Made by a program: the position numbers and the translations under genes. The notes below the pieces were generated by a model that saw only the letters and a program-made list of their open reading frames with translations, did not search any database and had not been told where the DNA came from. Shown here one piece after another: positions 1 to 24,477 of a DNA stretch of 24,477 nucleotides (position 1 is the stretch's first letter; every line of letters starts with the position of its first letter). The stretch is from a virus: positions 1 to 24,477 of the IMG/VR virus record IMGVR_UViG_3300042560_000266, one strand, 5' to 3'.

Positions 1-2
1 AT

Positions 3-539
3 ACACCCGAACAGTTATTTGATTTATTTAGGTCAAATAAGACACATAACTGTTTTATTGACCCGTTTACTGGTTTAAATAAGAAACATGAATGGGCGAG
101 TAATATAGATTTTTTGAATGATTGCCGTAACCATTGCAGCCAAACAAATCAAACGATTTATTTGTCGCAGCACCCAAATGCAGAAGGACAACGTAGAATC
201 TTAAACAAGGGCGAATATAGTGGTTATATAGATTCACCAATGCCAAGTCATGCAGAAGGTGGTGCAGGATTCTTTAATAGAGCAGATGATTTTATAGTTG
301 TTCACCGTTATGTAGGTCATCCAGTTTTGGGTAAGATAACACAAATAGGAATTAGGAAAATTAAAGAAACTGAAACGGGTGGAGACCCTACCGATATTGC
401 AGCACCGTTAGACTTTGATTTTAATAATGGATTAGGTTACAAAGAATGGGGTGCATCACCGTTAGCAAACGAAACAAACCTTAACGGATTACACAAAGGC
501 GGATATGCAGAACAAGTTGAAGAAGAACCACCTTTTTAA
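3..539 (+). CDS. Replicative DNA helicase-like ATPase, C-terminal part (5' end outside window)
   Basis: The reading frame is open from the first bases and runs to TAA at 537-539, so the gene starts upstream of the window and only about 178 C-terminal residues are seen. The first in-frame ATG at 114 is internal. The fragment has the pattern of the C-terminal RecA-like core of SF4 helicases (DnaB, T7 gp4 and Twinkle type): a strand ending in IYLSQHP, a Gly-rich segment with EGGAGFFNRADDFIVVHR, where F-N-x-A-D-x-x-x-V-x-R matches the usual sensor and arginine-finger region, and a strand with TQIGIRKIKETETGG. The tail is acidic and ends EEEPPF. It probably unwinds DNA at the phage replication fork. 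Walker A and any primase domain lie off the window. The family is fairly secure; whether it is a pure helicase or a primase-helicase cannot be told. Confidence 0.7.
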   Translation, partial: TPEQLFDLFRSNKTHNCFIDPFTGLNKKHEWASNIDFLNDCRNHCSQTNQTIYLSQHPNAEGQRRILNKGEYSGYIDSPMPSHAEGGAGFFNRADDFIVVHRYVGHPVLGKITQIGIRKIKETETGGDPTDIAAPLDFDFNNGLGYKEWGASPLANETNLNGLHKGGYAEQVEEEPPF

Positions 540-540
540 T

Positions 541-555
541 TTAGAATCATTCTAA
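541..555. promoter_or_regulatory. Perfect 15-bp palindrome, operator-like
   Basis: TTAGAAT, a central C, then ATTCTAA form two perfect 7-bp arms one base after the helicase stop codon. The arms are too AT-rich and there is no T-tract, so a terminator is unlikely. The centre is 33 bp before a TAAATTTG box at 581-588, a position where a dimeric regulator could sit. The role is inferred. Confidence 0.4.
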
Positions 556-580
556 TCACAATAAATCCAAACCGACAAAT

Positions 581-588
581 TAAATTTG
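581..588 (+). promoter_or_regulatory. Bacteroidota-type -7 box (TAAATTTG) before the AP2 gene
   Basis: TAAATTTG fits the TAnnTTTG -7 consensus of the Bacteroidota primary sigma factor and ends 5 nt before the ATG at 594. No TTG -33 element is visible at 18-22 nt upstream, so the match is partial. If used, the transcript would start at or next to the start codon. Confidence 0.35.
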
Positions 589-593
589 AAGAA

Positions 594-854
594 ATGAGAA
601 GAGAAACCAAAACCGCAACACCACCACGAGGTGTATTTAAAGATTCCGAATTTGTAACCATATTCAAAGGCGTTACTCGTTACGTTCACCCTATACATGG
701 TTATGTATGGTATTGCGCCCGTGTAGGTGGTAAATCAGAATCATGGCATGACACCGAAATTGAAGCAGCACGACAAGTTGATAGAATAAGAATAGGTAAG
801 GGATTAGAACCCGTAAATACATTTAGACCTAAATTAAGCGATTTAAAGGGTTAA
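594..854 (+). CDS. Stand-alone AP2-domain DNA-binding protein
   Basis: An 86-residue protein, most of which is one AP2/ERF-type domain (about residues 24-78). The landmarks are FKGVTRY at the start, WYCARVGG as the second strand, TEIEAARQVDRIRIGKG as the helix with the typical E-A-A-x-x-x-D pattern, and VNTF at the end. AP2 domains bind the DNA major groove with a three-stranded sheet. In phages they are usually fused to HNH homing endonucleases, but no HNH residues or extra domain are present here, so this is either a separate DNA-binding protein or what remains of a larger nuclease. Unlike most neighbours the gene does not overlap the next one: it has gaps of 54 nt before and 72 nt after, which hold a palindrome and a hairpin. 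The domain call is good; the biological role is unknown. Confidence 0.75.
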   Translation: MRRETKTATPPRGVFKDSEFVTIFKGVTRYVHPIHGYVWYCARVGGKSESWHDTEIEAARQVDRIRIGKGLEPVNTFRPKLSDLKG

Positions 855-2486: not shown

Positions 2487-2976
2487 TACAATTAACGATG
2501 ACAAGTCAATTAAAGACTATTGCACTAATTTGTGCCATTTCGGTGACGACGTATATCAAGAGATGCAACTGGCATTGTGCGAACTTCCCGAAACTAAACT
2601 TGAACAAATTATTGAAGGTGGATGGTTAAAGTTTTGGGCAATCAGAGTTTGCACCAATATGTCAAGGCAGCATCAATTAAGCAGACAGTTAAGACACCAC
2701 AAAGAAAACGGTAACGTACGGATTGAAGATGATGCAAGAGGATGTTACGAGATTGAATTACAAATTGATGCAATCATCAAATTAGAGCAAATTGAAAGTT
2801 ACTTATTAAAGATACATTGGTATGAATCATCTTTGTTCAAGTTGTATTTAGAAAAAGGTTCATTCAGAGCAGTTCAAGATGATACTGGTATTAATTTTCA
2901 ATCGGTACGGTGGACTGTTAACAAAGTTTACGAAGGTTTAAACAAATTATTTGATGAAAATATTAATCGTACATAG
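2461..2976 (+). CDS. Sigma-70-like regulatory protein
   Basis: A 171-residue protein counted from ATG 2461; a TTG two codons earlier is an alternative start. The layout resembles short alternative sigma factors. Residues about 28-70 have a region-2-like pattern (DDVYQEMQLALCELPE followed by LKFWAIRVCTNMSRQ, compare the D-L-x-Q-E and R-x-x-x-N positions). After a charged linker, residues about 124-166 have a region-4-like helix-turn-helix (LFKLYLEKGSFRAVQDDTGI, then FQSVRWTVNKVYEGL). It could recruit host RNA polymerase to phage promoters; the terminase and virion genes downstream are the obvious targets. Similarity is from pattern recognition only, and it could instead be an HTH packaging or replication regulator. 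It overlaps both the preceding gene and the next one (ATG 2954). Confidence 0.55.
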   Translation: MRLIEVAINTINDDKSIKDYCTNLCHFGDDVYQEMQLALCELPETKLEQIIEGGWLKFWAIRVCTNMSRQHQLSRQLRHHKENGNVRIEDDARGCYEIELQIDAIIKLEQIESYLLKIHWYESSLFKLYLEKGSFRAVQDDTGINFQSVRWTVNKVYEGLNKLFDENINRT

Positions 2977-3997
2977 TGGGTTATCGGGTGTAGATTATCA
3001 TAGGTTGATAGTTCCATTCCAAGCAATGGGAAAGGAATACCCATACATTGAGTTCTTCCAAATTAATCACCTTGAAGAACACGAAGGCAAACCTGCACCA
3101 AGCGTTAAGGATATTATAGATTGGGGTATTGAGATTTGTATATTTTCAAGAAACATATCCTATAAGTTTGACCCTGCACCAATATTTGCGAAACTAAAGG
3201 CAGCAAAAGTTAAGATAGTAATGGACATTGATGACTATTGGTATTTGCCAAAGAATCACGTTATGTCAACAATCTACAAGAATGCAAATCTATCCAAGTG
3301 TATAGAAGACCAAATCAGAATGTGCGATGCCGTTATCTGTACCCATAGAGTATTAGCCAACGAGATAGCAAAATTCAGACTATCAAAAACAATCTACATT
3401 GCACCAAACGCAATCGACCCAACCCAACCGCAATTCAACTTAGAGGGATTGGAATACGACTATGAGCATTTGTATTGGCAAGGTTCACCAACACACTTAC
3501 ACGACCTTGAATTAATGGTAGGTGCATTTGATGGGTTAATAGATTACAAATTAACATTAGGTGGGTATATTGAAGAAGAACCAATATGGAAGAAGTATCT
3601 TGAACTATTCGCCAAGAATAACATTGACTTTGAACCTGCGGTATTTGTAGGACAATATGCACGAAACTACATGAATAAAGGTATCTGTTTAATTCCGTTG
3701 AAGGACAACAAATTCAACCGCATGAAATCAGAACTAAAGGCTATTGAAGCAGGGTGGTTTCAAAAGCCAGTCATTGCATCGTACACACACCCATACACAA
3801 GAATGATAACCAATGATGTTGATGGACTATTCATTCACAAACCACACGAATGGAAACCGAAGATAAAAGGTTTACTATCTAATCACCAATGGCAGGATGA
3901 TTTAAGAATGAAACTGCACGAAACCGTACACAAGCGTTACCTAATTGAACGAGCAAATCAACAACGATTAAACTTACTATATGACCTTAAGCGATAG
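2954..3997 (+). CDS. Glycosyltransferase, GT-B fold (GT4-like)
   Basis: 347 residues from ATG 2954 (a TTG one codon earlier is possible). The N-terminal Rossmann half starts with MKILIVHSGLSGVDYHR, followed by VKIVMDIDDYWYLP and CDAVICTHRVLANEI. The hinge is at IYIAPNAIDPTQP, as in GT4 enzymes where the loop before the second domain reads P-N-x-x-D. The C-terminal half has LTLGGY, FVGQYARNYMNKGICLIPLK, then NRMKSELKAIEAGWFQKPVI, which matches the K-x-x-E-x-x-A-x-x-x-P donor-site pattern, and ends with DVDGLFI. It should transfer a sugar from a nucleotide-sugar donor, but the acceptor (virion protein, DNA base or host surface glycan) cannot be read from the sequence. It forms a cassette with the GT9-like and methyltransferase genes downstream. 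Confidence 0.75.
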   Translation: MKILIVHSGLSGVDYHRLIVPFQAMGKEYPYIEFFQINHLEEHEGKPAPSVKDIIDWGIEICIFSRNISYKFDPAPIFAKLKAAKVKIVMDIDDYWYLPKNHVMSTIYKNANLSKCIEDQIRMCDAVICTHRVLANEIAKFRLSKTIYIAPNAIDPTQPQFNLEGLEYDYEHLYWQGSPTHLHDLELMVGAFDGLIDYKLTLGGYIEEEPIWKKYLELFAKNNIDFEPAVFVGQYARNYMNKGICLIPLKDNKFNRMKSELKAIEAGWFQKPVIASYTHPYTRMITNDVDGLFIHKPHEWKPKIKGLLSNHQWQDDLRMKLHETVHKRYLIERANQQRLNLLYDLKR

Positions 3998-4178
3998 AAT
4001 GACCGAAATCATCACGCAGTTCTTAAAATCAGGAGAATTGCGATGGACTTTAGATGAAGCTAAAGAGTTCAAAAAATTGTACCAAGAAACATTCCGCAGC
4101 AATGTTGATTTAAGTTGCGGATTATGTACGGGAAGTTGTATTAAAAAAGTAGCGAGATATGCAAACATTCAAGCATAG
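3981..4178 (+). CDS. Small cysteine-motif protein
   Basis: 65 residues if started at ATG 3981; ATG 3999, directly after the glycosyltransferase stop, would give 59. The first two thirds are helical (TEIITQFL, then TLDEAKEFKKLYQETF) and the end carries C46-x2-C49-x3-C53 with basic residues (IKKVARY). Three cysteines with this spacing could bind a metal together with another ligand, or pack as a dimer. The gene lies between two glycosyltransferase-type genes and overlaps both, so it was kept inside the cassette. The function is unknown. Confidence 0.6.
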   Translation: MTLSDRMTEIITQFLKSGELRWTLDEAKEFKKLYQETFRSNVDLSCGLCTGSCIKKVARYANIQA

Positions 4179-4905
4179 CGGTAACACGGGTGATATACTC
4201 TATTCACTCTATTCAATCACACAAGACTGCATCTATTACATTCACCTTGACCAACCTGCTGACTATGGTGGTAGGGTTCATCCATTAGGCAACGTAATGA
4301 TGAATAGAAAGATGTTTGACATGATAGTGCCGTTGCTTCTGCACAATCCGTATATCAAAGAAGTCAAAGAATATAAAGGCGAAGAGATTGATTATGACCT
4401 TGACAAATTTAGAACCGCACCGATTGATTTGGGAAGGGGAGATATTAAACATTGGTACTATCTATTATATCCCGAACTTACACCGCACATACCATTGAAC
4501 CCATTACGAGGAATAAATGCTTTTAACTTTGGTTCACCTTACATAGCAGTTAATCGCACATTCCGTTATCGCAATCCTGATTTACGCTACAAGTGTCTAA
4601 ACGATTACGACATACCAATTCTCTTCATGGGATTACAAGATGAATTTGATGACTTTAAATTAAGAGTACCTAAAGCTATTCACACACCAGTCACAGACTT
4701 TTTACAAGCAGCAGAAATCATTAGGGGTGCATCGTTATTCATCGGCAACCAATCCATGATGTTTGCAATTAGCGAACTTTTACAAGTGCCAAGAATCTTA
4801 GAGGTGTATAAACACGCACCGAATGTTATACCTTCTGGCGGTCAATTCTATGAAGTCATTAACGAAACAAATCTTAAGAAGGCAATAGACCTGATAAACA
4901 TTTAA
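4159..4905 (+). CDS. GT9/heptosyltransferase-like glycosyltransferase
   Basis: 248 residues, with GT-B features related to family 9. The N-terminus FKHSGNTGDILYSLYSI matches the G-x-x-G-D-x-x-x-x-x-P entry loop of ADP-heptose:LPS transferases (the final Pro is absent). The C-terminal donor half includes YIAVNRTFRYRN, IPILFMGLQDEF, then FLQAAEIIRGASLFIGNQSM followed by MFAISELLQVPRI, which fits the S-x-x-x-G-x-x-S/T-G-x-x-H region with Gln-Ser in place of the usual residues. At 248 residues it is shorter than bacterial heptosyltransferases (about 320-350), and the N-terminal domain appears trimmed. It overlaps the Cys-motif gene by 20 nt. It probably acts in sequence with the GT4-like enzyme, but substrate and acceptor are unknown. 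Confidence 0.65.
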   Translation: MQTFKHSGNTGDILYSLYSITQDCIYYIHLDQPADYGGRVHPLGNVMMNRKMFDMIVPLLLHNPYIKEVKEYKGEEIDYDLDKFRTAPIDLGRGDIKHWYYLLYPELTPHIPLNPLRGINAFNFGSPYIAVNRTFRYRNPDLRYKCLNDYDIPILFMGLQDEFDDFKLRVPKAIHTPVTDFLQAAEIIRGASLFIGNQSMMFAISELLQVPRILEVYKHAPNVIPSGGQFYEVINETNLKKAIDLINI

Positions 4906-4914
4906 CCAATCAAC

Positions 4915-4922
4915 TATATTTT
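4915..4922 (+). promoter_or_regulatory. AT-rich promoter-like box (TATATTTT)
   Basis: TATATTTT lies in the 23-nt gap before the methyltransferase and ends 6 nt before its ATG. The same octamer, also preceded by AATCAA, stands 7 nt before the ATG at 8305. It is a candidate -7 element for the methyltransferase-TerS-TerL run. Confidence 0.4.
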
Positions 4923-4928
4923 AAACAC

Positions 4929-5492
4929 ATGGCAGAAACAAGTAAATCAAGACCAAGAAGAGAACAAGAAGGCTTCTTTGTTAAATACGTTCAAGAACCT
5001 ATCATTGATATTGGAGTAGGAAGAATAGATACTTATGATGGTGCTGACCCATTAACACCAGATTGTGACACATGGGATAAAGATGATGGCAATGCTGAAT
5101 TAATGAAATCAGTAAAGGACAACACATACATGACCGTTTACAATAGTCATTTGATTGAACACCTTAATGACCCAATCACGGCAATTCAGAATTGGTATAG
5201 GATTTGTAAACCAAATGGACACATCATCATTGCTGCACCTGACAGAGATAGTTATGAAAGAAAGAAAACGCTACCAAGTCAATGGAATGCAGACCATAAG
5301 TATTTCCTGACCTTAAACAATAACGAACCACCCTGCACATTCTCGTTATTAGGAATGATTGCGTATGCACTTGACAAGCATGAATACAGAATCAAATATG
5401 CTCAAACAATTAACACCTGCACCAACATGGACAAAATAAATGAGCATGGAAATGGTGAATATCAAATTGAAGTTGTAATACAGAAGTTATGA
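4929..5492 (+). CDS. SAM-dependent class I methyltransferase
   Basis: 187 residues. Motif I is present as PIIDIGVGRI (about residues 24-33), motif II-like acidic residues follow in DTYDGADPLTPD, and the Methyltransf_11-type signature appears as SHLIEHLNDPITAIQNWYRI (from residue 73) with KPNGHIIIAAPDR after it. This family commonly methylates sugars or small molecules, and less often DNA; no DNA-methylase catalytic motif (DPPY or PC) is present. Its start lies 23 nt after the GT9-like gene, behind a promoter-like box. The stop overlaps the ATG of TerS by 4 nt, so it is expressed with the packaging genes. It could methylate the sugar placed by the neighbouring transferases. The family is secure; the substrate is unknown. 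Confidence 0.75.
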   Translation: MAETSKSRPRREQEGFFVKYVQEPIIDIGVGRIDTYDGADPLTPDCDTWDKDDGNAELMKSVKDNTYMTVYNSHLIEHLNDPITAIQNWYRICKPNGHIIIAAPDRDSYERKKTLPSQWNADHKYFLTLNNNEPPCTFSLLGMIAYALDKHEYRIKYAQTINTCTNMDKINEHGNGEYQIEVVIQKL

Positions 5493-5899
5493 AAAGAGGA
5501 AGACCAAGAAACTTTGAAACACCTGATGAAATGTTAGAAGCGTTTGAAGAATACAAAAACTATACAAAACGCAATCCAAGATACAGATACCAATTATCAC
5601 AACGCACGGGAGAGATGGTAGAAGAACCACTTGAAGTACCTTTGACAATAGAGGGATTTAGCGTTTATTGTTATGATAAGTGGGGTTCAATTCATCAGTA
5701 TTTTAAAAATTTAAACAACGCATACGATGAATTTTTACCTATCTGTACGCGTATAAAGGAAGAAATCAGACAAGACCAAATCACGGGCGGTATGGTTGGG
5801 CAGTACAATGCAAGTATAACACAACGGTTGAACGGATTAGTTGACAAGCAAGAAGTAAGTGTATCAGAGCAACCGCTTTTTTCAGATGATAAAGAATAA
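5489..5899 (+). CDS. terS: Terminase small subunit
   Basis: 136 residues placed directly before the large subunit (stop TAA 5897-5899, next ATG 5900). The N-terminus MKRGRPRNFETPDEMLEAFE is basic then acidic, as in many phage DNA-recognition subunits. A central segment LTIEGFSVYCYDKWGSIHQY resembles the helix-turn-helix part of P22 gp3-like proteins. The C-terminal half has TGGMVGQYNASITQRLNGLV, with the pattern G-x-x-x-x-x-x-x-A-x-x-x-x-x-x-x-L-G-x-x-D/E shared with Nu1/gp3-type subunits, and ends EQPLFSDDKE. It should bind the packaging site on phage DNA and load it on TerL. The call rests on both sequence pattern and position. Confidence 0.8.
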   Translation: MKRGRPRNFETPDEMLEAFEEYKNYTKRNPRYRYQLSQRTGEMVEEPLEVPLTIEGFSVYCYDKWGSIHQYFKNLNNAYDEFLPICTRIKEEIRQDQITGGMVGQYNASITQRLNGLVDKQEVSVSEQPLFSDDKE

Positions 5900-7045
5900 A
5901 TGTTTAAATACACCACCGCAATACGAAAGCTAAGAAAGTTAACGAAACGGGTTAAGATTATTCGTGGTGGAACAAGTGCAGGTAAGACATTCGGAATCAT
6001 TCCGATTTTAATTGATTACGCAGCACGACACCCTAACACAGAAATAAGTATTGTATCAGAATCAATACCACATCTTAGAAGGGGTGCGATTAAAGACTTC
6101 TTAAAAATCATGCAATGGACTGGCAGGTTTAATCCTGACCATTGGAACAAGTCACTATTAACCTACTACTTCACAAATCGGTCATATATTGAGTTCTTTA
6201 GTGCCGACCAAGAGCAGAAACTAAGAGGTGCAAGAAGGAATATACTATACATCAACGAATGTAATAACGTTAACTTTGAATCCTATCATCAGTTAGCTAT
6301 TAGAACAAACGGTGATATTTGGTTGGATTATAACCCAGTTAGTGCGTTTTGGGTAGATGCGGAATTGATAGGTGATGAGGATAGCGAATTGGTTGTGTTG
6401 ACCTATAAAGATAATGAAGCACTTGACCAATCTATTGTCAAAGAAATAGAAAAGGCAAGAGAGAAGGCAGACACTTCCGACTATTGGGCTAATTGGTGGA
6501 AAGTATACGGATTAGGAGAAGTCGGACAAGTGCAAGGTACAATCTTCACTAACTGGCAGCAAATTGACAACTTGCCAAGTGATGCGACATTAAAGGGCAT
6601 CGGTATTGACTTTGGGTATAGCAACGACCCTACTGCTATTATAGCTACTTATTACCACAACGGGGTGTACATCTTCCATGAAGTAGAATACAAAACAGAG
6701 ATGCTCAATAGTGATGTGGCACAATCTGTTAAACCATTAAACACCCATTGCATTTGTGATAGTTCTGAACCGAAGAGTATAGCCGAATTAAAACGATTGG
6801 GGGTTAGAGCAATGCCATGCGACAAAGGTAAGGATAGTGTGAATTTCGGTATTCAGTCAATACAACAGATGGATAAATTCTACATCACATCAAGTAGCAC
6901 CAACTTAATCAAAGAGGTCAGGGGTTATGTATGGATGGAAGGCAAGACAAAACCGATTGAACACAACAACCACTCTATTGATGCAATGAGATACATATAC
7001 ACTCACTTAACAAATAAACGTTCAGGACATTATGACATACGATGA
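5900..7045 (+). CDS. terL: Terminase large subunit (PBSX-like)
   Basis: 381 residues, complete. The ATPase domain has Walker A GGTSAGKT at 23-30, a Walker B-like strand ILYINE at 115-120 with catalytic Glu120, and the coupling segment LVVLTYKDN near 164-172. The RNase H-like nuclease domain shows its acidic residues at Asp237 (GIGIDFGYSNDPTAI), Asp287 (CDSSEPKSIAELK) and Asp361 (HNNHSIDAMRY). All expected catalytic positions are intact, so it should be active in cutting and pumping DNA into the prohead. Walker A sits only about 20 residues from the start, which is short but usual for this family. The 3' end overlaps the next gene by 14 nt. Confidence 0.92.
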   Translation: MFKYTTAIRKLRKLTKRVKIIRGGTSAGKTFGIIPILIDYAARHPNTEISIVSESIPHLRRGAIKDFLKIMQWTGRFNPDHWNKSLLTYYFTNRSYIEFFSADQEQKLRGARRNILYINECNNVNFESYHQLAIRTNGDIWLDYNPVSAFWVDAELIGDEDSELVVLTYKDNEALDQSIVKEIEKAREKADTSDYWANWWKVYGLGEVGQVQGTIFTNWQQIDNLPSDATLKGIGIDFGYSNDPTAIIATYYHNGVYIFHEVEYKTEMLNSDVAQSVKPLNTHCICDSSEPKSIAELKRLGVRAMPCDKGKDSVNFGIQSIQQMDKFYITSSSTNLIKEVRGYVWMEGKTKPIEHNNHSIDAMRYIYTHLTNKRSGHYDIR

Positions 7046-7625
7046 TATTACATTAGGGCAATGGCTACAAATGGAAGAAGCAGCCAAAGATTATGACAAT
7101 GACTACTACCAAGCAGCAGCGAAGATTAGCGTTTTAAGCGGTCACGATGTAGATGATTTGATTAGTATGCCATTGAATAAGTACGGCAAGATTCAAAGCA
7201 AGTATGACTTCTTGATGTACGCACCACGCACAATCATGGCTACTACATTTGAAGGCAAACCATTTAATTTAGATTTTAAGACTTTGCCGTATGGTGACTT
7301 TGTTGACTTAATGGAAATCATCAAGACAACACCAGAACGAATAGATTTAATCATTGCTAAGTTATGGCAGAGTGGCATGACATTGGAAGCATCAGCAAAA
7401 GTAATACGAGAGAAGATGACTGTACCACTTGCGATGGGGTTGTCTGCTTTTTTTTTCGACTATTGGGAACGCTTACAACCACTCATCCTGCAATCTTTAA
7501 ACAAGAAGATACGCAAGATGGAGAAGGAAATGAAGATACATTCATCAAATCGTTTGGTTGGATTCTTTGGATTGATAAAATTGCGAATAACGAACCGCTT
7601 AAGTGGCATGAAGTGGAAGCGATGA
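7032..7625 (+). CDS. Tail assembly chaperone-like protein, zero-frame product
   Basis: 197 residues if no frameshift occurs. The N-terminal part (ITLGQWLQMEEAAKDYD, AAAKISVLSG, LPYGDFVDLMEII) is the compact helical type found upstream of tape measure genes in Bacteroidota phages. After LAMGLSAFFF the gene runs through nine T bases (7448-7456). The zero-frame tail becomes basic (LNKKIRKMEKEMK, then ITNRLSGMKWKR), while the -1 frame holds a well-formed protein segment that overlaps the next gene. This is the G/GT arrangement of lambda-like tail chaperones, where two products in a set ratio keep the tape measure soluble. The gene is 4.8 kb ahead of the tape measure rather than directly before it. 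Chaperone identity is an inference; the overlap of frames is seen. Confidence 0.6.
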   Translation: MTYDDITLGQWLQMEEAAKDYDNDYYQAAAKISVLSGHDVDDLISMPLNKYGKIQSKYDFLMYAPRTIMATTFEGKPFNLDFKTLPYGDFVDLMEIIKTTPERIDLIIAKLWQSGMTLEASAKVIREKMTVPLAMGLSAFFFDYWERLQPLILQSLNKKIRKMEKEMKIHSSNRLVGFFGLIKLRITNRLSGMKWKR

Positions 7626-14246: not shown

Positions 14247-14250
14247 TCAA

Positions 14251-16366: not shown

Positions 16367-16368
16367 TT

Positions 16369-16893: not shown

Positions 16894-16933
16894 CATTTTC
16901 TTTTCGATTTGTCATAATTATTTTTGAATTGAA

Positions 16934-16959: not shown

Positions 16960-16962
16960 CGT

Positions 16963-16997
16963 TTTAAACAAAAGACCGTTAGTTTATATATAGGTAT
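16963..16997 (+). promoter_or_regulatory. Promoter-like element after the terminator
   Basis: TTTAAACA (16963-16970), ACCGT (16975-16979) and TTATATATA (16984-16992) precede the ATG at 16998 by 5 nt. The blocks match those at 14251-14280 in order and spacing. Placement directly behind an intrinsic terminator supports a restart of transcription here. Confidence 0.5.
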
Positions 16998-17372: not shown

Positions 17373-19293
17373 CAACGGATTATACAGTTTAGACTTCACG
17401 GCATACAATGCACCTAACTTCATTGAAAACAAAAGGGGCAAATATGTTGAGTATGGTGAAGATAACGCATTCCCATTTTACTTGGTTGACCTATTTAATG
17501 GTAGCAGCGTTCATAACGCTATTGTAACGGGCAAGGTAAACTATATTGTTGGTCGTGGACTGACAGTACCAAACGACATGAACACGCTTAAAAGAGCAAT
17601 GGTTGAAGCATTTGTCTTTTCACCAAATCCATACGAAACATGGAATGACATCTTTAAAAAGATAGCAGCAGATTATGAGATTTACAATGGATTTGCAATA
17701 GAGGTTTTAAACGATAAAAACGGCAAGATAAGCGAAGTATATCACATGGACTTTGGTCGGTTGAGAGTACCAATAGATGACCGTAACAACGTGATGTATT
17801 CTGATGAGTGGTTGAATCTTCAATGGGGAATGGATGACTTTACTTACAACCGTAATTTCAGACCCAAAACAACTTTACTTCCTTTATTCAATCCTAACAA
17901 AACACAAAGCAGGTCGGTAATTTATCACCGTGAATACCGACCAAACATGAAAGAATATCCATTACCTGACTACATCGGTGCTTTACAACAAATCAGAACG
18001 CAAATAGAGATAAGTAATTTTGATTTGAACACGATTGTAAACGGTTTTGCAGGTGGTACGATGATAAATCTTTACAACGGAATGCCACCCGAAGAAGAGC
18101 AAAAGAACGCTATTGAACAACAGATATATGACAAGGCAGCAGGAAGTTCAAATGGTAATAGAATCCTAATCAACTTTGCTGATTCAAAAGATACATCAGG
18201 TGCGGAGATATTGAACTTAATGGGCAACGACTTGCCCGATAGATTTGCACAACTTGAAAAGCGTGTGACAGATTCAATCTTCATTGGTCATAAGGTAACA
18301 TCACCAATGTTATTCGGTGTAAAAACAGAAGGTCAATTAGGTGGCAGAACAGAGATGTTAAATGCTTACGAACTATTCAAAGAAACCTACATACAAGGAA
18401 GACAGAGAATCTTATTAAATGTAGTCAATGATGTGTTTGATTACAAAGGTTTAGGCAGACCAATATCAGTTGAAGAATTAAGACCTATTACAACTGAATT
18501 GCCAGTTATAGACCCAGTCACAATGATAAGTCTATTTGACCGTGAGAAATTGAAGGAAAGAGTATCAGAAGTGTATGGAATTTCGCCAAGTGATGAGCAA
18601 AACACAACCGAAGAAACTCAATTAAGTATAAAGTTTGAAGAGCAATTTGATGATGCCATTTTAAACTACTTCAAAAACAAAGGTGTCAAGGCAGATGATT
18701 ACGAGATAGTTGGTGACTTTCAAGTTAATGCAGATAACGAAAGTGTGAAGTTTGAAATCAATGAAAATGACTTTGAATTTGCTGACCCAACCGAAAAGCA
18801 ATTAGCGGAGATAGCTAAGATTGTTCGTGCTAACAAAGGCATAACCATAGCCGAAGTAGCAAAGGTGATGAAAGTCGATGTGGCAACGATAGAAAGTGCC
18901 GTACAAGCGTTGATTAATAAGAAGATGATAGTTAGGGCAGATAACGGTAATATGAATGTCACACAGTCTGCATTGCCTTTAATCATGAAGCTACCTAACC
19001 CTGATGAAGTACTATTAGTTAAATATCAATACGGTATTAGAAATGACATGAGTGGTCAACCTTTGGTAATTCAAAAGACAAGGCAATTCTGCCGTGAGTT
19101 GGTTGCATCAAATAAGCTATACACCAAAGAAGAAATAGAAGGCATGAGAAATGACATGGAAGTTAGTTTCTTGCCATATATAACAAATGTATGGATGGCA
19201 CGAGGTGGATGGTATAGAAGAAAAGGAACGGATGTAAGTGTGCCATTTTGCCGACATATTTGGCGTCAAGTAGTAGTTAAATCAAAGCGTTAA
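17359..19293 (+). CDS. Portal protein with C-terminal extension
   Basis: 644 residues. The first 450 or so are a portal of the SPP1/HK97-like superfamily: FPFYLVDLFNGSSVHNAIVT, KVNYIVGRGL, NPYETWNDIFKKIAADYEIY, LPDYIGALQQIRTQIEISNF, then GGTMINLYNG, HKVTSPMLFGVKTEGQLGGR with TEMLNAYELFKETYIQGRQR, which is the stem and crown pattern. Beyond this lies an extension: an acidic stretch, a winged-helix-like segment at about 482-540 (ANKGITIAEVAKVMKVDVAT, IESAVQALINKKMIVRADNG), and an end GGWYRRKGTDVSVPFCRHIW at 616-635, similar to the C-terminal cysteine/histidine part seen in phage morphogenesis proteins. The portal lies after the capsid gene, not between terminase and protease. The core assignment is firm; the role of the extension is unknown. 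Confidence 0.75.
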   Translation: MKQISNGLYSLDFTAYNAPNFIENKRGKYVEYGEDNAFPFYLVDLFNGSSVHNAIVTGKVNYIVGRGLTVPNDMNTLKRAMVEAFVFSPNPYETWNDIFKKIAADYEIYNGFAIEVLNDKNGKISEVYHMDFGRLRVPIDDRNNVMYSDEWLNLQWGMDDFTYNRNFRPKTTLLPLFNPNKTQSRSVIYHREYRPNMKEYPLPDYIGALQQIRTQIEISNFDLNTIVNGFAGGTMINLYNGMPPEEEQKNAIEQQIYDKAAGSSNGNRILINFADSKDTSGAEILNLMGNDLPDRFAQLEKRVTDSIFIGHKVTSPMLFGVKTEGQLGGRTEMLNAYELFKETYIQGRQRILLNVVNDVFDYKGLGRPISVEELRPITTELPVIDPVTMISLFDREKLKERVSEVYGISPSDEQNTTEETQLSIKFEEQFDDAILNYFKNKGVKADDYEIVGDFQVNADNESVKFEINENDFEFADPTEKQLAEIAKIVRANKGITIAEVAKVMKVDVATIESAVQALINKKMIVRADNGNMNVTQSALPLIMKLPNPDEVLLVKYQYGIRNDMSGQPLVIQKTRQFCRELVASNKLYTKEEIEGMRNDMEVSFLPYITNVWMARGGWYRRKGTDVSVPFCRHIWRQVVVKSKR

Positions 19294-19297
19294 AATC

Positions 19298-19876
19298 ATG
19301 CCACAAGTACTGTTAATATCACCAGACGAATTTAAGGAAGCTACACCCGTACATGGTAATGTAGATGAAAAATTAATTAGGCAATCTATATTAGCTTGTC
19401 AAGACATATTCGTGCAAAACATCATAGGTACGGGTATTTACTTACAAATTAAAACACAAGTATCAGCATCAACGCTGACTAACTTGAATACGACCTTGTT
19501 AAATGACTACTTACAACCTGCAATGCGTTATTGGATAATGGCAGAAATAATCAGACCGATTTCATTGCGTTATATGAATGTGGGGGTTGAGCAAAAAAGA
19601 ACAGAGGTATCAAATCCAATATCTGAAAAGACTATTGCGGAAACTGAAAACCATTACCGTAATCGTGCCGAGTGGTATGCCGAACAATGCACTAAGTATC
19701 TTTGTGAATATTCAGATGACTACCCATTGTTTTTGAATCCTGGTGACGGAGTTGATACAATAGTACCGAATCAAAACAACTACACAACCGCTATATTTTT
19801 AGGGGGTGTACGTGGAAAGAAAAATACAAATCTACTTACCTATGATGAACCATTCAGAAGAAGCAAGAAATACTGA
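19298..19876 (+). CDS. Head-tail connector protein (DUF6712-like)
   Basis: 192 residues, 4 nt after the portal. The N-terminal half is an all-helical connector of the gp6/gp15 type: ISPDEFKEATPVHGNVDEKL, IRQSILACQDIFVQNIIGTG with the usual Q-D-x-x-x-x-x-I-I-G-T pattern, then LNDYLQPAMRYWIMAEIIRP and ISLRYMNVGV. The end (ENHYRNRAEWYAEQCTKYLC) is a second helix, and the tail DYPLFLNPGDGVDTI is extended. It would form the ring that closes the portal and binds the tail. The DUF number is from memory of the family and not checked. Confidence 0.65.
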   Translation: MPQVLLISPDEFKEATPVHGNVDEKLIRQSILACQDIFVQNIIGTGIYLQIKTQVSASTLTNLNTTLLNDYLQPAMRYWIMAEIIRPISLRYMNVGVEQKRTEVSNPISEKTIAETENHYRNRAEWYAEQCTKYLCEYSDDYPLFLNPGDGVDTIVPNQNNYTTAIFLGGVRGKKNTNLLTYDEPFRRSKKY

Positions 19877-19997
19877 TAAGCTAAGGGGTACGGGAAAAAA
19901 GAACCTTGAAAAGTTAAAAATATACTTAGAAAAACATGACCTTAAATCAGATAATAGACCACTTAAAAGCATTCCAAGAGAATCACTTACAAGTTAA
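19842..19997 (+). CDS. Possible small helical protein in the connector/terminator overlap
   Basis: A 51-residue frame from ATG 19842 (a longer GTG start at 19806 is possible) spans the 59-nt gap between the connector stop (19876) and the next ATG (19936), overlapping both. The middle reads like a charged helix (EEARNTDKLRGTGKKNLEKL, then KIYLEKHDLK), with no rare codons. It is uncertain: overlaps of 35 and 62 nt are longer than the norm in this window, and nothing identifies a function. It could be a true small gene or a chance frame. Confidence 0.35.
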   Translation: MMNHSEEARNTDKLRGTGKKNLEKLKIYLEKHDLKSDNRPLKSIPRESLTS

Positions 19998-20559
19998 GCA
20001 TTATATCTTTGGAAATAACGCATCTATTGACAATGAGAAAGACATTGATGGTGTACTTATGTGGGTATTTGTTGATGCGCAAGGTGGTCGAATATCAGAA
20101 ACGCAGTTCACCTATAATATGCAAATTGCATTTCTTGATGTCTTGAATCCAGATGATGAGAATTTAGAAGATGTATTATCAGATACATTACAAATTGCAC
20201 AAGATTTAGCAGCGTGGTTGGATAGATATAGTGAATCGGCACTTGAATATTCATTCAATAGGGTCAGTTCAATTCAACCTATTCGTGAAAGGTTTGAATC
20301 TGACTATGCAGGTCATATTATAACGGTGGCAATAGATATGCCATTTCCTTACGATAAGTGTCAAATACCAACTATTAACGGTGAAAACCCACCAAGTCCG
20401 TGTGATTTATTTTTGAATGGAATTTCAACAACACAATGGGATTGTATCACTAATTCAAATCACTACTCTTACACCTACATTATCAATGTCAACGGGGTAT
20501 TAAATCAAACTGGCACATTTGACCCATTAGTTTCAAACACATTTAACATCAGCGCATAA
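19936..20559 (+). CDS. Tail terminator/completion-like protein
   Basis: 207 residues. It starts MTLNQIIDHLKAFQENHLQV, a helix like that opening tail completion proteins of Bacteroidota phages, followed by KHYIFGNN. The core alternates strands and helices: DIDGVLMWVFVDAQGG, TQFTYNMQIAFLDVLNPDDE, LEDVLSDTLQIAQDLAAWLD, FNRVSSIQPIRERFESDYAG with HIITVAIDMPFPYDKCQ. The alpha/beta layout resembles gpU/gp17-type terminators that cap the tail tube. A C-terminal part of about 45 residues (SPCDLFLNGISTTQWDCI onward) is an added beta domain. It shares one base with the fibre gene start. The role is inferred from position next to the connector. Confidence 0.5.
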   Translation: MTLNQIIDHLKAFQENHLQVKHYIFGNNASIDNEKDIDGVLMWVFVDAQGGRISETQFTYNMQIAFLDVLNPDDENLEDVLSDTLQIAQDLAAWLDRYSESALEYSFNRVSSIQPIRERFESDYAGHIITVAIDMPFPYDKCQIPTINGENPPSPCDLFLNGISTTQWDCITNSNHYSYTYIINVNGVLNQTGTFDPLVSNTFNISA

Positions 20560-23102
20560 TGAGTACACTTAATATAAATCTTAACAACGTTCAACCATTA
20601 GACACCATTTTAACGGGTCTAAGTGGTTTGGCATATTCGGGCAATCAAGGGCTATTTATTAAAGTTAATGCAACAGCAGATGGATTTGAATTTGCAGCAG
20701 GTTCGGGCGGTGTTCCTTACACGGGTGCTACCCAAGATGTTAATTTAGGTGAGTATGAATTAAAGGCAGGTCAAATTGAATATGACCAAACTCCAACGGG
20801 TGCAGCAGGTGTAGCCATAACAAGGTGGAATGATAGCATAGGTACACTTGAAACCACTTTAAAAGGTGGCAATGTAGTCTTAAAACATGGTCGTGACCTA
20901 TTTGAAAGGGTAGTCAATAAAACGGGTATTCAACTAACTAAGGCAGCATATCAAGCGGTTCGGGTAAGTACGGCACAAGGTCAGAGATTAGGTGTTGCAT
21001 TAGCACAAGCCAATAATGATAACAATAGTGCAGATACAATAGGATTAGTAGTTGAAACCATTGACAACAACCAAGAAGGCATAATTTATGTAGTTGGGGA
21101 AATTGATGGTATCAACACAACGGGTTCACTTCAATCAGAAACGTGGGTAGATGGTGATGTGTTATATCTAAGCCCAACAACGGCAGGAAGAATAACAAAT
21201 GTAAAGCCAACAGCACCACAGCATCTTGTTGTGATTGGTTATGTTGTTTATGCTCATGCTACACAAGGTAAAATCTATGTGAAGGTGAACAATGGTTTTG
21301 AACTTGGCGAATTGCACGATGTAGATACAACGGGTGCTACTAATGGTCAAGTTTTAAAATTTAACGGCACTATTTGGACTGCACAAACCGATTTAAATTC
21401 GGGTGTATGGGGTAGCATTACGGGTACACTTTCATCACAAACAGATTTACAAAGTGCGTTAGATGGCAAGGTAGATGAAAATGCAACTATCACGGGTGCA
21501 ACCAAGACAAAGATAACCTACGATGCAAAGGGGTTAGTAACAAGTGGGGCTGATGCTACAACGGCAGATATAGCAGCAAGTACTAATAAGAACTATGTAA
21601 CCGATGCACAACTAACCGTAATAGGCAATACAAGCGGAACGAATAGCGGGAATCAAACCTTAGCTAACACATCAGATGCGACTTCACACACCGTTACATT
21701 ATCAGCAACGGGTGGAAGTTTTCAGTTAGTAGAGGGTAGTGGAATAACATTAACTACAACGGGTACGGCAGCAGATGGAATTATAACTATTGCATCAAGC
21801 GGTGGGGGTTCATCGTTTGCAGATAACGTGTTTGAAATATTTGACAACACAGACAATACTAAGAAACTTGCATTTCAAGCAAGTGGAATAACAACGGGAA
21901 CAACACGAACCTTAACAATACCAAATGCGAATGGTACTATTGCATTAACTTCTGATTTAGCATCATACGTACCTTATACGGGTGCAACAACTTCGGTTAA
22001 TTTAGGTGCGAACAATCTAACTGCAACGGCAGGAACATTTTCGGGTGCATTTGCAGTAGGTACTGATGCAATTTATAGGGTAGCAGGTTCGAGTAAAGTT
22101 AGTTTTGGCACAACGGTTCAAAATTATCAATTCACCTTGTATGCAACGGGAAATGATAATAGATTACATTTTCTAAATAACACAACAGGTACTGCCGTAA
22201 CAGATGGTATGTTCATGGGTTTAGATGATGGAATTAACTTTTCATTTTGGCAGCGTGAAAATGGTTATATCCGTTTTGGTACTAACGAAACTGAAAGATT
22301 AAGAATAACCAATGATGGTCGTGTTGCTATTGGCAATACCGCACCTGCTGCTATCTTACACGCTAATAGTTCGGGTGGTGCTACCGATTTGTTCAGAGTT
22401 GATTTAGCAGGAGTAAGAAGATTCAGAATTACAAGTGGTGGTACAGTCACATTAATAAGTAATAACACGGGATTCTACGAAGGCACATCAACGGGTTTTG
22501 ACTTTTCAAATACCAATGCACCTGCTGCTACTCAAAGTGCATACAATTTTTATGGAAGAACATCAACGAATGCAACGGGAGAATCTACCCATTTTGATAT
22601 GGGCGGTAAAAATATTGCTGCAACAACGGGATTTGCAAGAGCATCAGGCACGGGTACATGGATAGGTGCAAGATTAGACTATACAATAAATAACACGGGT
22701 ACATATTCAGGAACAGTAACGGGATTCTATATAAATGCGACCGAAACATCAATCACGGGTACTACACACAATTTATTGAATTTGCTCGTAGGCGGTTCAA
22801 GCAGGTTTAGAGTTAATAATTCTGGTAAAATAACATTTGATAGTACAATAACGGCAGGTGGCACAACGGGAAATCAAACCATAAACAAACCAAGTGGAAC
22901 GGTCAACATAGCAGCAGCAGGTACAACTGTAACAGTAACAAATAGCTTAGTAAGTACTTCATCAATAGTAATTGCAGTAGTTAGAACTAACGATTCAACG
23001 GCATATATTAAAAATGTAGTACCAAGTGCAGGAAGTTTTGTAATTACATTAGGTGCAGCAGCAACCGCAGAAGTATCAATCGGATTTATCGTAAACAACT
23101 AA
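20559..23102 (+). CDS. Tail fibre/receptor-binding protein
   Basis: 847 residues, beta-rich, low complexity in Thr, Gly, Ala and Asn. The N-terminal part (MSTLNINLNNVQPLDTIL) probably attaches to the tail. A repeated unit VPYTGAT-x-x-V-N-L-G appears at residues 52 and 471, usual in trimeric fibre shafts. Between them is a globular module (VVLKHGRDLFERVVNKTGIQ, VYVVGEI-like strands, WVDGDVLYLSPTTAGRITNV). The C-terminal third has fibre signatures such as NTTGTAVTDGMFMGLDDGIN, ETERLRITNDGRVAIGNTAP and FRVNNSGKITFDSTITAGG, as in phage fibres with YadA-like turns, and ends with a small hydrophobic strand domain (EVSIGFIVNN). No intramolecular chaperone is apparent. It likely sets host range. Confidence 0.7.
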   Translation: MSTLNINLNNVQPLDTILTGLSGLAYSGNQGLFIKVNATADGFEFAAGSGGVPYTGATQDVNLGEYELKAGQIEYDQTPTGAAGVAITRWNDSIGTLETTLKGGNVVLKHGRDLFERVVNKTGIQLTKAAYQAVRVSTAQGQRLGVALAQANNDNNSADTIGLVVETIDNNQEGIIYVVGEIDGINTTGSLQSETWVDGDVLYLSPTTAGRITNVKPTAPQHLVVIGYVVYAHATQGKIYVKVNNGFELGELHDVDTTGATNGQVLKFNGTIWTAQTDLNSGVWGSITGTLSSQTDLQSALDGKVDENATITGATKTKITYDAKGLVTSGADATTADIAASTNKNYVTDAQLTVIGNTSGTNSGNQTLANTSDATSHTVTLSATGGSFQLVEGSGITLTTTGTAADGIITIASSGGGSSFADNVFEIFDNTDNTKKLAFQASGITTGTTRTLTIPNANGTIALTSDLASYVPYTGATTSVNLGANNLTATAGTFSGAFAVGTDAIYRVAGSSKVSFGTTVQNYQFTLYATGNDNRLHFLNNTTGTAVTDGMFMGLDDGINFSFWQRENGYIRFGTNETERLRITNDGRVAIGNTAPAAILHANSSGGATDLFRVDLAGVRRFRITSGGTVTLISNNTGFYEGTSTGFDFSNTNAPAATQSAYNFYGRTSTNATGESTHFDMGGKNIAATTGFARASGTGTWIGARLDYTINNTGTYSGTVTGFYINATETSITGTTHNLLNLLVGGSSRFRVNNSGKITFDSTITAGGTTGNQTINKPSGTVNIAAAGTTVTVTNSLVSTSSIVIAVVRTNDSTAYIKNVVPSAGSFVITLGAAATAEVSIGFIVNN

Positions 23103-23106
23103 AAAC

Positions 23107-23481
23107 ATGAATTATAAAATTAAACTATTAACACCATCAGAAATAGCATCTACACCAAGTGCCAAACCATTCTGTATCTTTGAGCCGATTGAACTTGAAG
23201 TGTATTTTATTAATACATTTGAAAAGACTACACAAGAAGCAACAGAAGCAACAGAAGCCATAATAGAAAAGTTTGTCAGAGTTGACACCAAGATTACACA
23301 AGTACTAACAAACGAACAAGGTAGTTTTGTTTCAAGGACTGATAGATACACACACCACACCTTTCCATTTGCAGTATGGCAAGCAGGAGTAAAAGGAGTT
23401 GATTTAGACACGGGTCAACCTATATTAGATGAAACTATATTAAATCAAATTTGTAGTCAATTCGGAGTTAAACTAATATGA
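23107..23481 (+). CDS. Hypothetical protein
   Basis: 124 residues starting 4 nt after the fibre gene. I do not recognise it. A short strand part (MNYKIKLLTPSEIA) and IELEVYFINTFEK are followed by a run of Glu-Ala-Thr encoded by a 9-nt repeat (EATEATEA, from 23236), then FVRVDTKITQVLTNEQGSFV. The end contains HHTFPFAVWQAGVKGVDLD and is probably helical. It may be a fibre-associated or assembly factor because of its place directly behind the fibre. It overlaps the next gene by 4 nt (ATGA). Confidence 0.6.
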   Translation: MNYKIKLLTPSEIASTPSAKPFCIFEPIELEVYFINTFEKTTQEATEATEAIIEKFVRVDTKITQVLTNEQGSFVSRTDRYTHHTFPFAVWQAGVKGVDLDTGQPILDETILNQICSQFGVKLI

Positions 23482-23828
23482 AAAACTTAGCACTATTAAT
23501 AATAGCTATTTTGTTATCAATATTAATATTTCCGATTGCGTTAATTTATGCCATTGTTACAAGGGGATTAAATACATTAGGTCGTGATTCATGGAACAAT
23601 GCAATAGCTATTGACCAGTTAGGGAATGTATGGTGTAAGCACCTATTCAACGATTTGATGTGTCATGCTGACGGGCATCGTTTTGGTGACCCTAACGAAA
23701 CGGTCAGTCATGTGTTAGGCAAGAATAAAGCACAAAACAAACTATATCCAATAGGAAAGGCATTAGCGTGGTTATTGAATAAGATAGATGAAAACCACGT
23801 TGAAAAAGCAAATAAAAATAAACAGTAA
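23478..23828 (+). CDS. Conserved phage membrane protein of unknown function
   Basis: 116 residues with one N-terminal hydrophobic segment (residues 4-29, LALLIIAILLSILIFPIALI and following), after which the chain is soluble. The soluble part has a His/Cys-containing block, WCKHLFNDLMCHADGHRFGD, then NETVSHVLGKNKAQNKLYPI and ALAWLLNKIDENHVEKA. I know the pattern from small proteins near lysis or tail genes of Bacteroidota phages, but no function is established to my knowledge. A signal-anchor arrangement just upstream of the holin would fit a lysis accessory or host-entry role. There is no typical spanin lipobox. Confidence 0.6.
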   Translation: MKNLALLIIAILLSILIFPIALIYAIVTRGLNTLGRDSWNNAIAIDQLGNVWCKHLFNDLMCHADGHRFGDPNETVSHVLGKNKAQNKLYPIGKALAWLLNKIDENHVEKANKNKQ

Positions 23829-23832
23829 AATT

Positions 23833-23988
23833 ATGGAATTTAGATTAAACGAAGCGAAAGCAAATCAAATCATGGAGTTGTTAAATGAACTACCAATCAA
23901 ATCAACGAGCATCGTTCAGAAGATTGTTAGCGTCATTAATGAGTGTGTAGTGAAAGAAGAAGAACCGATTAAGAAGGAAACGAAATGA
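23833..23988 (+). CDS. Small helical protein (51 residues)
   Basis: The start chosen is ATG 23833, 4 nt after the previous stop (ATTATGG context); an ATG at 23788 inside that gene would add 15 residues of a Lys-rich start. The chain is amphipathic and helical: FRLNEAKANQIMELLNELPI, KSTSIVQKIVSVINECVV, and an acidic/basic end. L-x-E-L-P-x-K-x-x-x-x-I-V-x-K-I is a pattern I have seen in tiny proteins in this position. It overlaps the holin start by 4 nt. Confidence 0.6.
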   Translation: MEFRLNEAKANQIMELLNELPIKSTSIVQKIVSVINECVVKEEEPIKKETK

Positions 23989-24398
23989 ACCTAATTAGCA
24001 AGGATAACATCATTATGGTATTGATACCATTCTTAACGGCATTCTTTACACCTATTGCACCGATGATAATTTTGGTGGTATTCTTGCTATTTGCCGATTT
24101 ATTCACGGGCATTTGGAAATCAAGAAAGAAAGGCAGACCAATAACATCAGAGGGCATGAGTTACACTATTACCAAACTGATAATGTATTTCTTGGCAATA
24201 GCTATTGGTCGTGCATTTGAGATGGTGTTTTTAGATGACTTGAATTTCTCAATACCATTGGCATCATTCACGGCAGGATATATCAGTTTGGTTGAAGTGA
24301 AATCCAATTTTGAGAATATTGGCGAGATTACGGGTACAGACATTTGGTCATTAGTAAAGGACAAATTGAACGGGCTTAAATCAGGGGCGAAACTATGA
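23985..24398 (+). CDS. Phage holin (toxin secretion/phage lysis holin family)
   Basis: 137 residues. Hydrophobic segments lie at about 9-40 (IIMVLIPFLTAFFTPIAPMI, then ILVVFLLFADLFTGIW) and 60-80 (ITKLIMYFLAIAIG). The cytoplasmic loop D-x-F-T-G-I-W-K-S-R-K-K-G-R-x-I-x-S matches the conserved D-x-x-T-G-x-x-K-A loop of Phage_holin_4-type proteins. It should form membrane lesions at the end of infection so that the endolysin reaches the wall. It is coupled by ATGA overlaps to the small gene before and to the M15-like peptidase after. Confidence 0.75.
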   Translation: MNLISKDNIIMVLIPFLTAFFTPIAPMIILVVFLLFADLFTGIWKSRKKGRPITSEGMSYTITKLIMYFLAIAIGRAFEMVFLDDLNFSIPLASFTAGYISLVEVKSNFENIGEITGTDIWSLVKDKLNGLKSGAKL

Positions 24399-24477
24399 TA
24401 GGTCAACTAACTAAGAACTTTCATGCAGATGAGTTCAAGTGCAAGGATGGTACACCAGTACCAATGGAGTATAAAGT
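24395..24477 (+). CDS. M15-type peptidase endolysin, N-terminal start (3' end outside window)
   Basis: A frame from ATG 24395, inside the holin stop, is open to the window end and gives about 27 residues: IGQLTKNFHADEF, then KCKDGTPVP. The L-T/S-x-N-F-x-x-x-E-F-x-C-x-D-G-x-x-V-P opening is characteristic of peptidase M15_3-type (D-Ala-D-Ala or L-Ala-D-Glu) endolysins, which cleave peptidoglycan cross-links. The zinc ligands lie beyond the window. Its place right behind the holin strongly supports a lysin. Confidence 0.65.
   Translation, partial: MIGQLTKNFHADEFKCKDGTPVPMEYK

What the first reader, a model, noticed from the sequence alone, without database searches (positions are those of the whole stretch)
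1..24477. GATC appears to be absent from the whole window
Reading every line, I found several hundred GAT trinucleotides followed by A, T or G, and none followed by C. For an AT-rich window of this size dozens of GATC sites would be expected by composition. The codons look adapted: Asp is usually GAT, but where the next codon starts with C it is GAC, as in Asp-Pro at about 3170, 3416, 6627, 10823, 10935 and 13940, and Asp-Leu at about 3981 and 4398. This fits strong counter-selection by a GATC-cutting host restriction system (MboI/Sau3AI type), or avoidance of a methylation-linked system, across early, head, tail and lysis genes alike.
Basis: partly seen in the sequence, partly recalled or inferred. 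Interest (0 to 1): 0.7.

Follow-up and report, generated by a model that had tools for sequence, protein, structure and literature searches.

The report
Phage genome emptied of restriction sites
This piece of an uncultured bacterial virus really has no GATC, but GATC is only one of about a dozen short symmetrical DNA words it has purged, most likely because host bacteria carry many enzymes that cut DNA at such words; this is a known escape strategy, here in an unusually broad form.

Summary
Confirmed: GATC occurs 0 times in 24,477 bases; codon-preserving shuffles give about 58-60. It is also absent from 7.6 kb upstream, seen in an overlapping identical contig. CTAG, CCGG, GGCC, GGNCC, GGNNCC, CCNNGG and CASTG are also at zero; CGCG, GCNNGC and CGNCG are at one each; all stay far below expectation when the others are held empty, GGNCC least. 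Other six-base palindromes stand at half expectation, while six-base words with a broken middle or inner pair are at 1.03 and 1.00. TTAA, GANTC and GCNGC are normal. Sister strains about 4-5% apart gained 5 such sites where 71 were expected (controls 111 of 143), so purging continues. More distant relatives have lost different sets. Best explanation: selection by many orthodox Type II restriction systems, probably in Bacteroidota hosts; host and enzymes are unidentified. A single GATC system or mismatch-repair avoidance cannot explain the rest. The phenomenon is textbook; its breadth, and one motif (CTNNAG) empty only in the right part of the window, are the interesting parts.

The parts
1..24477 (.). 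Span with no GATC, CTAG, CCGG, GGCC, GGNCC, GGNNCC, CCNNGG or CASTG on either strand
   Evidence: Counts against within-gene codon shuffles and leave-one-out nulls
2547..2551 (.). The only CGNCG site (CGACG), 23.5-26 expected
5748..5751 (.). The only CGCG site, 17-19 expected
23379..23384 (.). The only GCNNGC site (GCAAGC), about 25 expected
3001..13600 (.). Stretch where CTNNAG is near normal: 20 sites, 24.8-26.3 expected
13601..24477 (.). Stretch where CTNNAG is nearly empty: 1 site (15690), 32.0-32.5 expected
5489..5899 (+). Terminase small subunit
   Evidence: phrog_606 E 5e-18; PF16677
5900..7045 (+). Terminase large subunit; used to find relatives
   Evidence: phrog_2 E 6e-34; 55% identity to Flavobacterium phages
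14287..15405 (+). Protein with XkdF-type protease domain
   Evidence: PF14550 E 3e-11
15425..16366 (+). Probable major capsid protein (virion structural protein)
   Evidence: phrog_1623 E 6e-6; the name capsid is inferred from place and size
17359..19293 (+). Portal protein
   Evidence: phrog_33693 E 1.5e-32
23985..24398 (+). Holin
   Evidence: PF05105 E 5e-11

Best explanation
The window is part of a tailed phage, probably of a Bacteroidota host, whose genome has been purged, mostly through synonymous codon choice, of the recognition sites of many orthodox Type II restriction enzymes. GATC (MboI/DpnII/Sau3AI type) is the most numerous lost site, but CTAG, CCGG, GGCC, CGCG, GGNCC, GGNNCC, CCNNGG, GCNNGC, CGNCG, CASTG and many six-base palindromes were selected against too. 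Mechanism: an incoming unmethylated genome that holds a site is cut, so site-free variants survive; when the phage lineage meets a new system it purges that word as well. Shown here: absence beyond what proteins and codon usage impose, dependence on intact symmetry, continuing purge among sister strains, lineage-specific site sets. Inferred: that restriction enzymes are the agent, and that several hosts or host strains contributed.
For: Eleven symmetrical motifs at 0 or 1 against 8-58 expected with each gene's protein and codon usage kept, none of 500 shuffles as low for any of them; leave-one-out nulls still expect 4.8-59.6 of each, and no sample of 40 was as low as observed for any. The effect needs intact symmetry: 39 remaining kinds of six-base palindrome 175 seen, 345 sd 16 expected; inner pair broken 1.00, middle pair broken 1.03, no pairs 1.00. 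Independent 7.6 kb upstream shows the same empty set. In strains L004, L005 and L054 the ten motifs gained 5 sites, 70.9 expected; nine control motifs 111, 142.6 expected. Different relatives have emptied different sets, some only GATC (L025) and some not GATC (L013, L080, L081), which a mutation bias or a fixed physical cause would not give. Emptied words match specificities of known Type II enzymes (recalled). Pfam restriction enzyme families DpnII, HpaII, NgoPII, NgoBV and Eco47II occur over cut-off in 7, 7, 2, 2 and 4 of 296 genomes of the phylum sampled. Published surveys find elimination almost only for orthodox Type II sites (PMC6286503).
Against: No host, no restriction enzyme and no methylome for this phage. 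Of the 7 DpnII matches only 1 is full-length and strong; the others are partial, and no genome in these five searches carried two of the families. The nine control motifs also gained fewer sites than expected (0.78, none of 300 simulations as low; TATA 13 of 27.9, CATG 3 of 8.2), so the SNP null is too generous, although 0.78 is far from 0.07; L004 and L005 overlap, so their SNPs are not all independent. GTAC is also modestly low (82, 101 expected), and TCGA, ACGT and AGCT are partly low. Asymmetric words such as ACAGS (4, 71 expected) and CGTC (10, 90 expected) are strongly depleted too and I cannot assign them; surveys say non-palindromic systems are rarely avoided. Six-base words with a four-base palindromic core but a broken outer pair are at 0.90.
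Confidence: 0.88

Rival explanations
1. One GATC-cutting host system (MboI/Sau3AI type) alone explains the finding.
For: GATC is the largest single gap (0, 58-60 expected). L025, a relative, has lost GATC and no other tested palindrome class.
Against: CTAG, CCGG, GGCC and others are empty as well, also in nulls where GATC is already forbidden.
Confidence: 0.03
2. A generic anti-palindrome process, such as a structure-specific nuclease or one enzyme of relaxed specificity, rather than many separate restriction systems.
For: Six-base palindromes are low as a class, 15 of 39 kinds absent.
Against: Several palindromes are untouched: TTAA 238 (236 expected), TGCA 153 (137), GCNGC 58 (55), GANTC 58 (58); ATTAAT 20 (21.6), AATATT 20 (21.0), TTTAAA 30 (30.6), and TAGCTA 8 (3.4) above expectation. 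Relatives lose different classes.
Confidence: 0.05
3. Avoidance of Dam methylation or methyl-directed mismatch repair, as discussed for phiX174, which also lacks GATC.
For: phiX174 has no GATC where 20 are expected, and adding 20 sites cut its mutation rate eightfold (PMC5014478, abstract and passages).
Against: Says nothing about CTAG, CCGG, GGCC, GGNNCC and the rest. That paper also reports that some GATC sites had no effect and that the forces remain unclear. Dam and MutH in the host were not tested here.
Confidence: 0.02
4. Codon usage, amino-acid sequence or mutation bias produces the gaps without selection on the words.
For: The window is AT-rich (37% GC), and some words are rare for that reason.
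Against: Nulls that keep each gene's protein and codon usage expect 58 GATC; broken palindromes are at 1.00-1.03; strains of the same phage show a deficit of new sites.
Confidence: 0.01

Closest known systems
Restriction-site avoidance in prokaryotic viruses (Rusinov et al. 2018, PMC6286503; abstract, Results and first part of the Discussion read)
   Same: Complete or nearly complete elimination of orthodox Type II sites, seen in about a tenth of viral genomes; GATC under-represented in all 46 phages whose hosts carry the enzymes; GCNNGC mostly avoided, GCNGC not, as here.
   Different: There hosts and enzymes are known; here they are not. Here about eleven motifs are empty at once, and I have no count of how common that is among phages at large. 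Some asymmetric words are depleted here.
GATC-free phiX174 (PMC5014478; abstract and passages)
   Same: No GATC where 20 are expected.
   Different: That case is discussed as mismatch-repair avoidance in a 5.4-kb genome; here many other palindromes are gone too.
Avoidance of 6-bp palindromes in plasmids (Shaw et al. 2023, PMC10359461; passages)
   Same: Class-wide loss of six-base palindromes, stronger in broad-host-range plasmids, and solitary methyltransferases as an alternative means of protection.
   Different: Plasmids, not phages; there no such correlation for four-base words, which are the most complete losses here.
Staphylococcus phages without Sau3AI sites, such as phage K (recalled, from no call)
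   Same: GATC-free genome of a lytic phage.
   Different: Other phage group and host; from memory only.

Membership tests
Avoidance of orthodox Type II restriction sites in a phage genome | Word count far below what protein sequence and codon usage allow | tested here: met
   GATC 0 against 58.4 sd 6.2; eleven motifs, none of 500 shuffles as low for any
Avoidance of orthodox Type II restriction sites in a phage genome | Effect specific to symmetrical words | tested here: met
   Six-base palindromes 0.51; inner or middle pair broken 1.00 and 1.03, outer pair broken 0.90. Some asymmetric words are depleted too
Avoidance of orthodox Type II restriction sites in a phage genome | Selection still removes new sites | tested here: met
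   5 gains, 70.9 expected, in three sister strains; controls 111, 142.6 expected
Avoidance of orthodox Type II restriction sites in a phage genome | Avoided set differs between lineages | tested here: met
   CATG 0 in L018 and 38 in L052 at 82.5% identity
Avoidance of orthodox Type II restriction sites in a phage genome | Host encodes the cognate restriction enzymes | not testable with these tools
   Host unknown; only the presence of five enzyme families in 296 genomes of the phylum was tested
Single GATC system (MboI/DpnII/Sau3AI) as sole cause | Depletion limited to GATC | tested here: not met
   Ten other symmetrical motifs independently empty
Methyl-directed mismatch-repair avoidance | Depletion limited to the Dam word GATC | tested here: not met
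Methyl-directed mismatch-repair avoidance | Host has Dam and MutH | not tested
   Host unknown
Protection by phage-encoded methylation | Phage encodes a DNA methyltransferase | tested here: met
   L075 6568-7368 (-), PF01555 E 1e-38, PADLOC orphan methyltransferase E 2.8e-86; outside the window, on the identical contig
Protection by phage-encoded methylation | Its target word is known and is one that is not avoided | not testable with these tools
   Specificity cannot be read from the sequence here

The most novel reading that the evidence does not exclude
Different parts of one phage genome carry different restriction histories. CTNNAG is purged only in the right part (1 site, about 32 expected, in 13.6-24.5 kb, against 20 of about 25 in 3-13.6 kb), while the other emptied words are empty throughout, and contigs L080 and L081, which have the closest capsid proteins apart from the same species and a few like fragments, lack CTNNAG almost entirely. 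The set of emptied words would then be a readable, part-by-part record of the restriction systems that past hosts imposed, usable to date recombination and host change in phages with no known host.
Probability: 0.4. Interest if true: 0.62.

Novelty: new member of a known kind. Interest (0 to 1): 0.42.

Why it matters
In an uncultured phage family it shows that the set of emptied restriction sites is broad, differs between lineages and is still under selection. Metagenomic contigs with different site sets could be used to infer which restriction systems their unknown hosts carry and how fast phages adapt when they change host. As a finding about GATC alone it is ordinary.

Tried and rejected
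Megablast of the whole window against annotated phages gave no match, so there is no named close relative. The one genome-contig scan, with a terminase alignment, gave 18 loci at 38-62% identity, 12 of them titled as Bacteroidota groups, so the host was not pinned. No C5 methyltransferase was found in 4 same-species records, which are fragments. PF01555 was found in 6 of 22 and PF02086 in 1 of 22 related records (L050, where GATC is not avoided, 69 against 56): too few to link methyltransferases with spared words. A free search for degenerate motifs counted near-palindromic words twice and was replaced by fixed palindromes and leave-one-out nulls. The first strain alignment gave nothing because the locus files were not where the script looked; one search replaced it. 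The asymmetric depleted words (ACAGS, CGTC, GAGNC, GGAGS and others) could not be assigned to enzymes and are left open; GGAG-like words could also reflect avoidance of ribosome-binding-like sequence. Literature: nine searches, of which 34 and 50 returned nothing; no listed title or abstract start dealt with avoidance confined to part of a phage genome, but the library is open-access only and most listed papers were not opened. PMC8262939 and PMC12707154 were seen as passages only.
Full report
What was checked. The window is a complete virus record of 24,477 bases. GATC occurs 0 times; dinucleotide shuffles give 63.9 on average, genome-wide synonymous shuffles 60.0 sd 6.3 and within-gene synonymous shuffles 58.4 sd 6.2, minimum 42 in 500.

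It is not only GATC. Seen against codon-null expectation: CTAG 0 (36-38), CCGG 0 (22-25), GGCC 0 (15), GGNNCC 0 (21-23), CCNNGG 0 (11.5-13), GGNCC 0 (8), CASTG 0 (24-26), and one each of CGCG (17-19), GCNNGC (25-26) and CGNCG (23.5-26). In leave-one-out nulls, in which the other ten motifs are held empty, each is still expected above what is seen; the weakest is GGNCC, 4.8 expected with a minimum of 1 in 40 samples. TTAA, GANTC and GCNGC are at expectation, TGCA slightly above (153, 137 expected) and GTAC modestly below (82, 101 expected). TCGA (14, 63 expected), ACGT (33, 77) and AGCT (31, 62) are partly low. CATG is 70 against 60 in the codon null although a dinucleotide model expects 133. 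CCNGG is 2 against 11. Asymmetric words are depleted as well, ACAGS 4 (71 expected) and CGTC 10 (90 expected), and I cannot name their enzymes.

Symmetry. The 39 kinds of six-base palindrome that contain none of the emptied motifs stand at 175 against 345 sd 16, with 15 kinds absent. Six-base words with the inner pair broken stand at 1.00, with the middle pair broken at 1.03, with no pairs at 1.00, and with only the outer pair broken (a four-base palindromic core) at 0.90. Dependence on intact symmetry is what dimeric Type II restriction enzymes would impose.

Replication and continuing selection. A second contig of 27,759 bases is identical to the window over 1-20117 (loci L002 and L053) and extends upstream. 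In the 7,643 upstream bases GATC is 0 (19.4 expected), CTAG 0 (12.2), CCGG 0 (7.4), GGCC 0 (8.0), CGCG 0 (6.3), CASTG 0 (9.0), GGNNCC 0 (7.7), GGNCC 0 (7.9), CCNNGG 0 (7.6), CGNCG 0 (5.7) and GCNNGC 1 (7.8); ACAGS (9, 19.2 expected) and TCGA (11, 19.2 expected) are less depleted there than in the window. Sister strains L004, L005 and L054 differ from the window by 355, 387 and 215 SNPs in 6,971, 7,404 and 5,529 aligned bases. When the same changes are re-placed at random among positions with the same base change, codon position and effect, 36.0 new sites of GATC, CTAG, CCGG and GGCC are expected and 3 are seen; for ten motifs 70.9 are expected and 5 are seen; for nine control motifs 142.6 are expected and 111 are seen. 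The controls are therefore also low (TATA 13 of 27.9, CATG 3 of 8.2), so part of the deficit is a fault of the null, and L004 and L005 overlap. Outside the aligned parts L005 holds two GGCC sites.

Relatives. Among 34 other viral loci of at least 9 kb, 13 have five or more palindrome classes at or below a tenth of the dinucleotide expectation and 8 have none; the window has 11 of 48. Among 16 loci of that length from genome contigs none has five or more and 10 have none. Many loci are from the same clusters, so these counts are not independent, and some genome contigs may be phage fragments. The sets differ: L025 has lost only GATC (0, 49 expected); L024 GATC, CCGG, CCNGG, CGCG and CGNCG; L013 CATG, GCGC and others but not GATC (25, 40 expected); L080 and L081 CTAG, CTNNAG, GGCC and CGCG but not GATC (20 of 50 and 11 of 25). 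L018 has no CATG where L052 has 38 in 8,468 aligned bases at 82.5% identity, so sets turn over between fairly close relatives. By an order-2 Markov model six-base palindromes stand at 0.41 in the window, at 0.22 and 0.30 in L081 and L080, and at 0.44-0.96 in the other unrelated records; two genome-contig loci are also low, 0.49 and 0.50.

The phage. Recognisable proteins are terminase subunits, a weak tape-measure match, a virion structural protein that I take as the capsid, portal, an XkdF-type protease, holin, and upstream NinG, an exonuclease, a ParB-like protein and a DnaA-like domain. No integrase appeared among the proteins scanned, but not every ORF was scanned and the genome may be incomplete, so the lifestyle is open. 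The twenty best terminase matches listed among annotated phages are Flavobacterium phages at 55% identity, and 12 of 18 relatives in genome contigs are titled as Bacteroidota groups, so the host is probably in that phylum. From 6.4 to 7.2 kb upstream of window base 1 lies a solitary N4/N6 DNA methyltransferase. Its target word is unknown; it may protect words that are not avoided.

Mechanism. Restriction enzymes cut unmethylated incoming phage DNA, so variants without sites survive. The symmetry requirement, the deficit of new sites in strains and the differences between relatives are shown; that restriction is the agent and that many systems contributed is inferred. Pfam restriction enzyme families DpnII, HpaII, NgoPII, NgoBV and Eco47II (motifs GATC, CCGG, GGCC, GGNNCC and GGNCC, recalled) are over cut-off in 7, 7, 2, 2 and 4 of 296 sampled genomes of the phylum, never two in one genome; only one of the seven DpnII matches is full-length. 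So such enzymes exist there but are scattered, which fits many hosts over time but does not prove it. Published work finds complete or nearly complete elimination in about a tenth of viral genomes, almost only for orthodox Type II sites and mainly in non-temperate phages (PMC6286503), and stronger avoidance of six-base palindromes in broad-host-range plasmids (PMC10359461, passages). GATC absence tied to mismatch repair in phiX174 (PMC5014478, abstract and passages) cannot explain the other motifs.

A regional difference. CTNNAG stands at 20 (24.8-26.3 expected) in 3-13.6 kb but at 1 (32.0-32.5 expected, minimum 17 in 500) in 13.6-24.5 kb. Sister strains agree: L005, which covers mostly the left part, has 13 sites; L054, which covers the right part, has none. 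Restriction acts on the whole molecule, so a regional gap suggests that the two parts joined by recombination after different histories. The capsid is 72% identical to that of L080, which has 2 CTNNAG sites where 80 are expected. Against this reading: L080 also has relatives of two left-part genes at 31-36% identity, about as close as its other right-part genes; the boundary was chosen after seeing the data, and about a dozen motifs were looked at. I lowered the probability of this reading from 0.45 to 0.40 when these facts were written in.

Verdict. It is a broad and still maintained case of a well-known anti-restriction strategy.

Noticed in passing
L075 6568-7368 (-), about 6.4-7.2 kb upstream of window base 1: Solitary N4/N6 DNA methyltransferase (PF01555, PADLOC orphan methyltransferase) with relatives in 654 annotated phage records; target word unknown.
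   Followed up: partly
window 13600-24477 against 3000-13600: CTNNAG nearly empty only in the right part: 1 site with about 32 expected, against 20 with about 25 expected.
   Followed up: partly
L014, L015, L017, L018 against L016, L019, L052: In one cluster of relatives CATG is gone or nearly gone in four contigs and present at about half expectation in three, at 82-85% nucleotide identity between the two groups: a recent purge or recovery.
   Followed up: partly
window 1-24477: Asymmetric words ACAGS, CGTC, GAGNC and GGAGS are strongly depleted on top of the palindromes; no enzyme assigned.
   Followed up: partly
L050 (record G020) 19632-20306 of the contig: The only related record of 22 with a Dam-family methyltransferase match (PF02086), and GATC is not avoided there (69, 56 expected).
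   Followed up: no
window 2951-5492: A glycosyltransferase-like protein (phrog_7162), a 248-aa protein without family match and a small SAM-dependent methyltransferase (PF13489) stand together before the terminase genes.
   Followed up: no
window 7032-7714: ORFs 7032-7625 and 7364-7714 overlap in different frames just upstream of tail genes, where tail chaperone frameshifts are common in phages (recalled); not tested.
   Followed up: no
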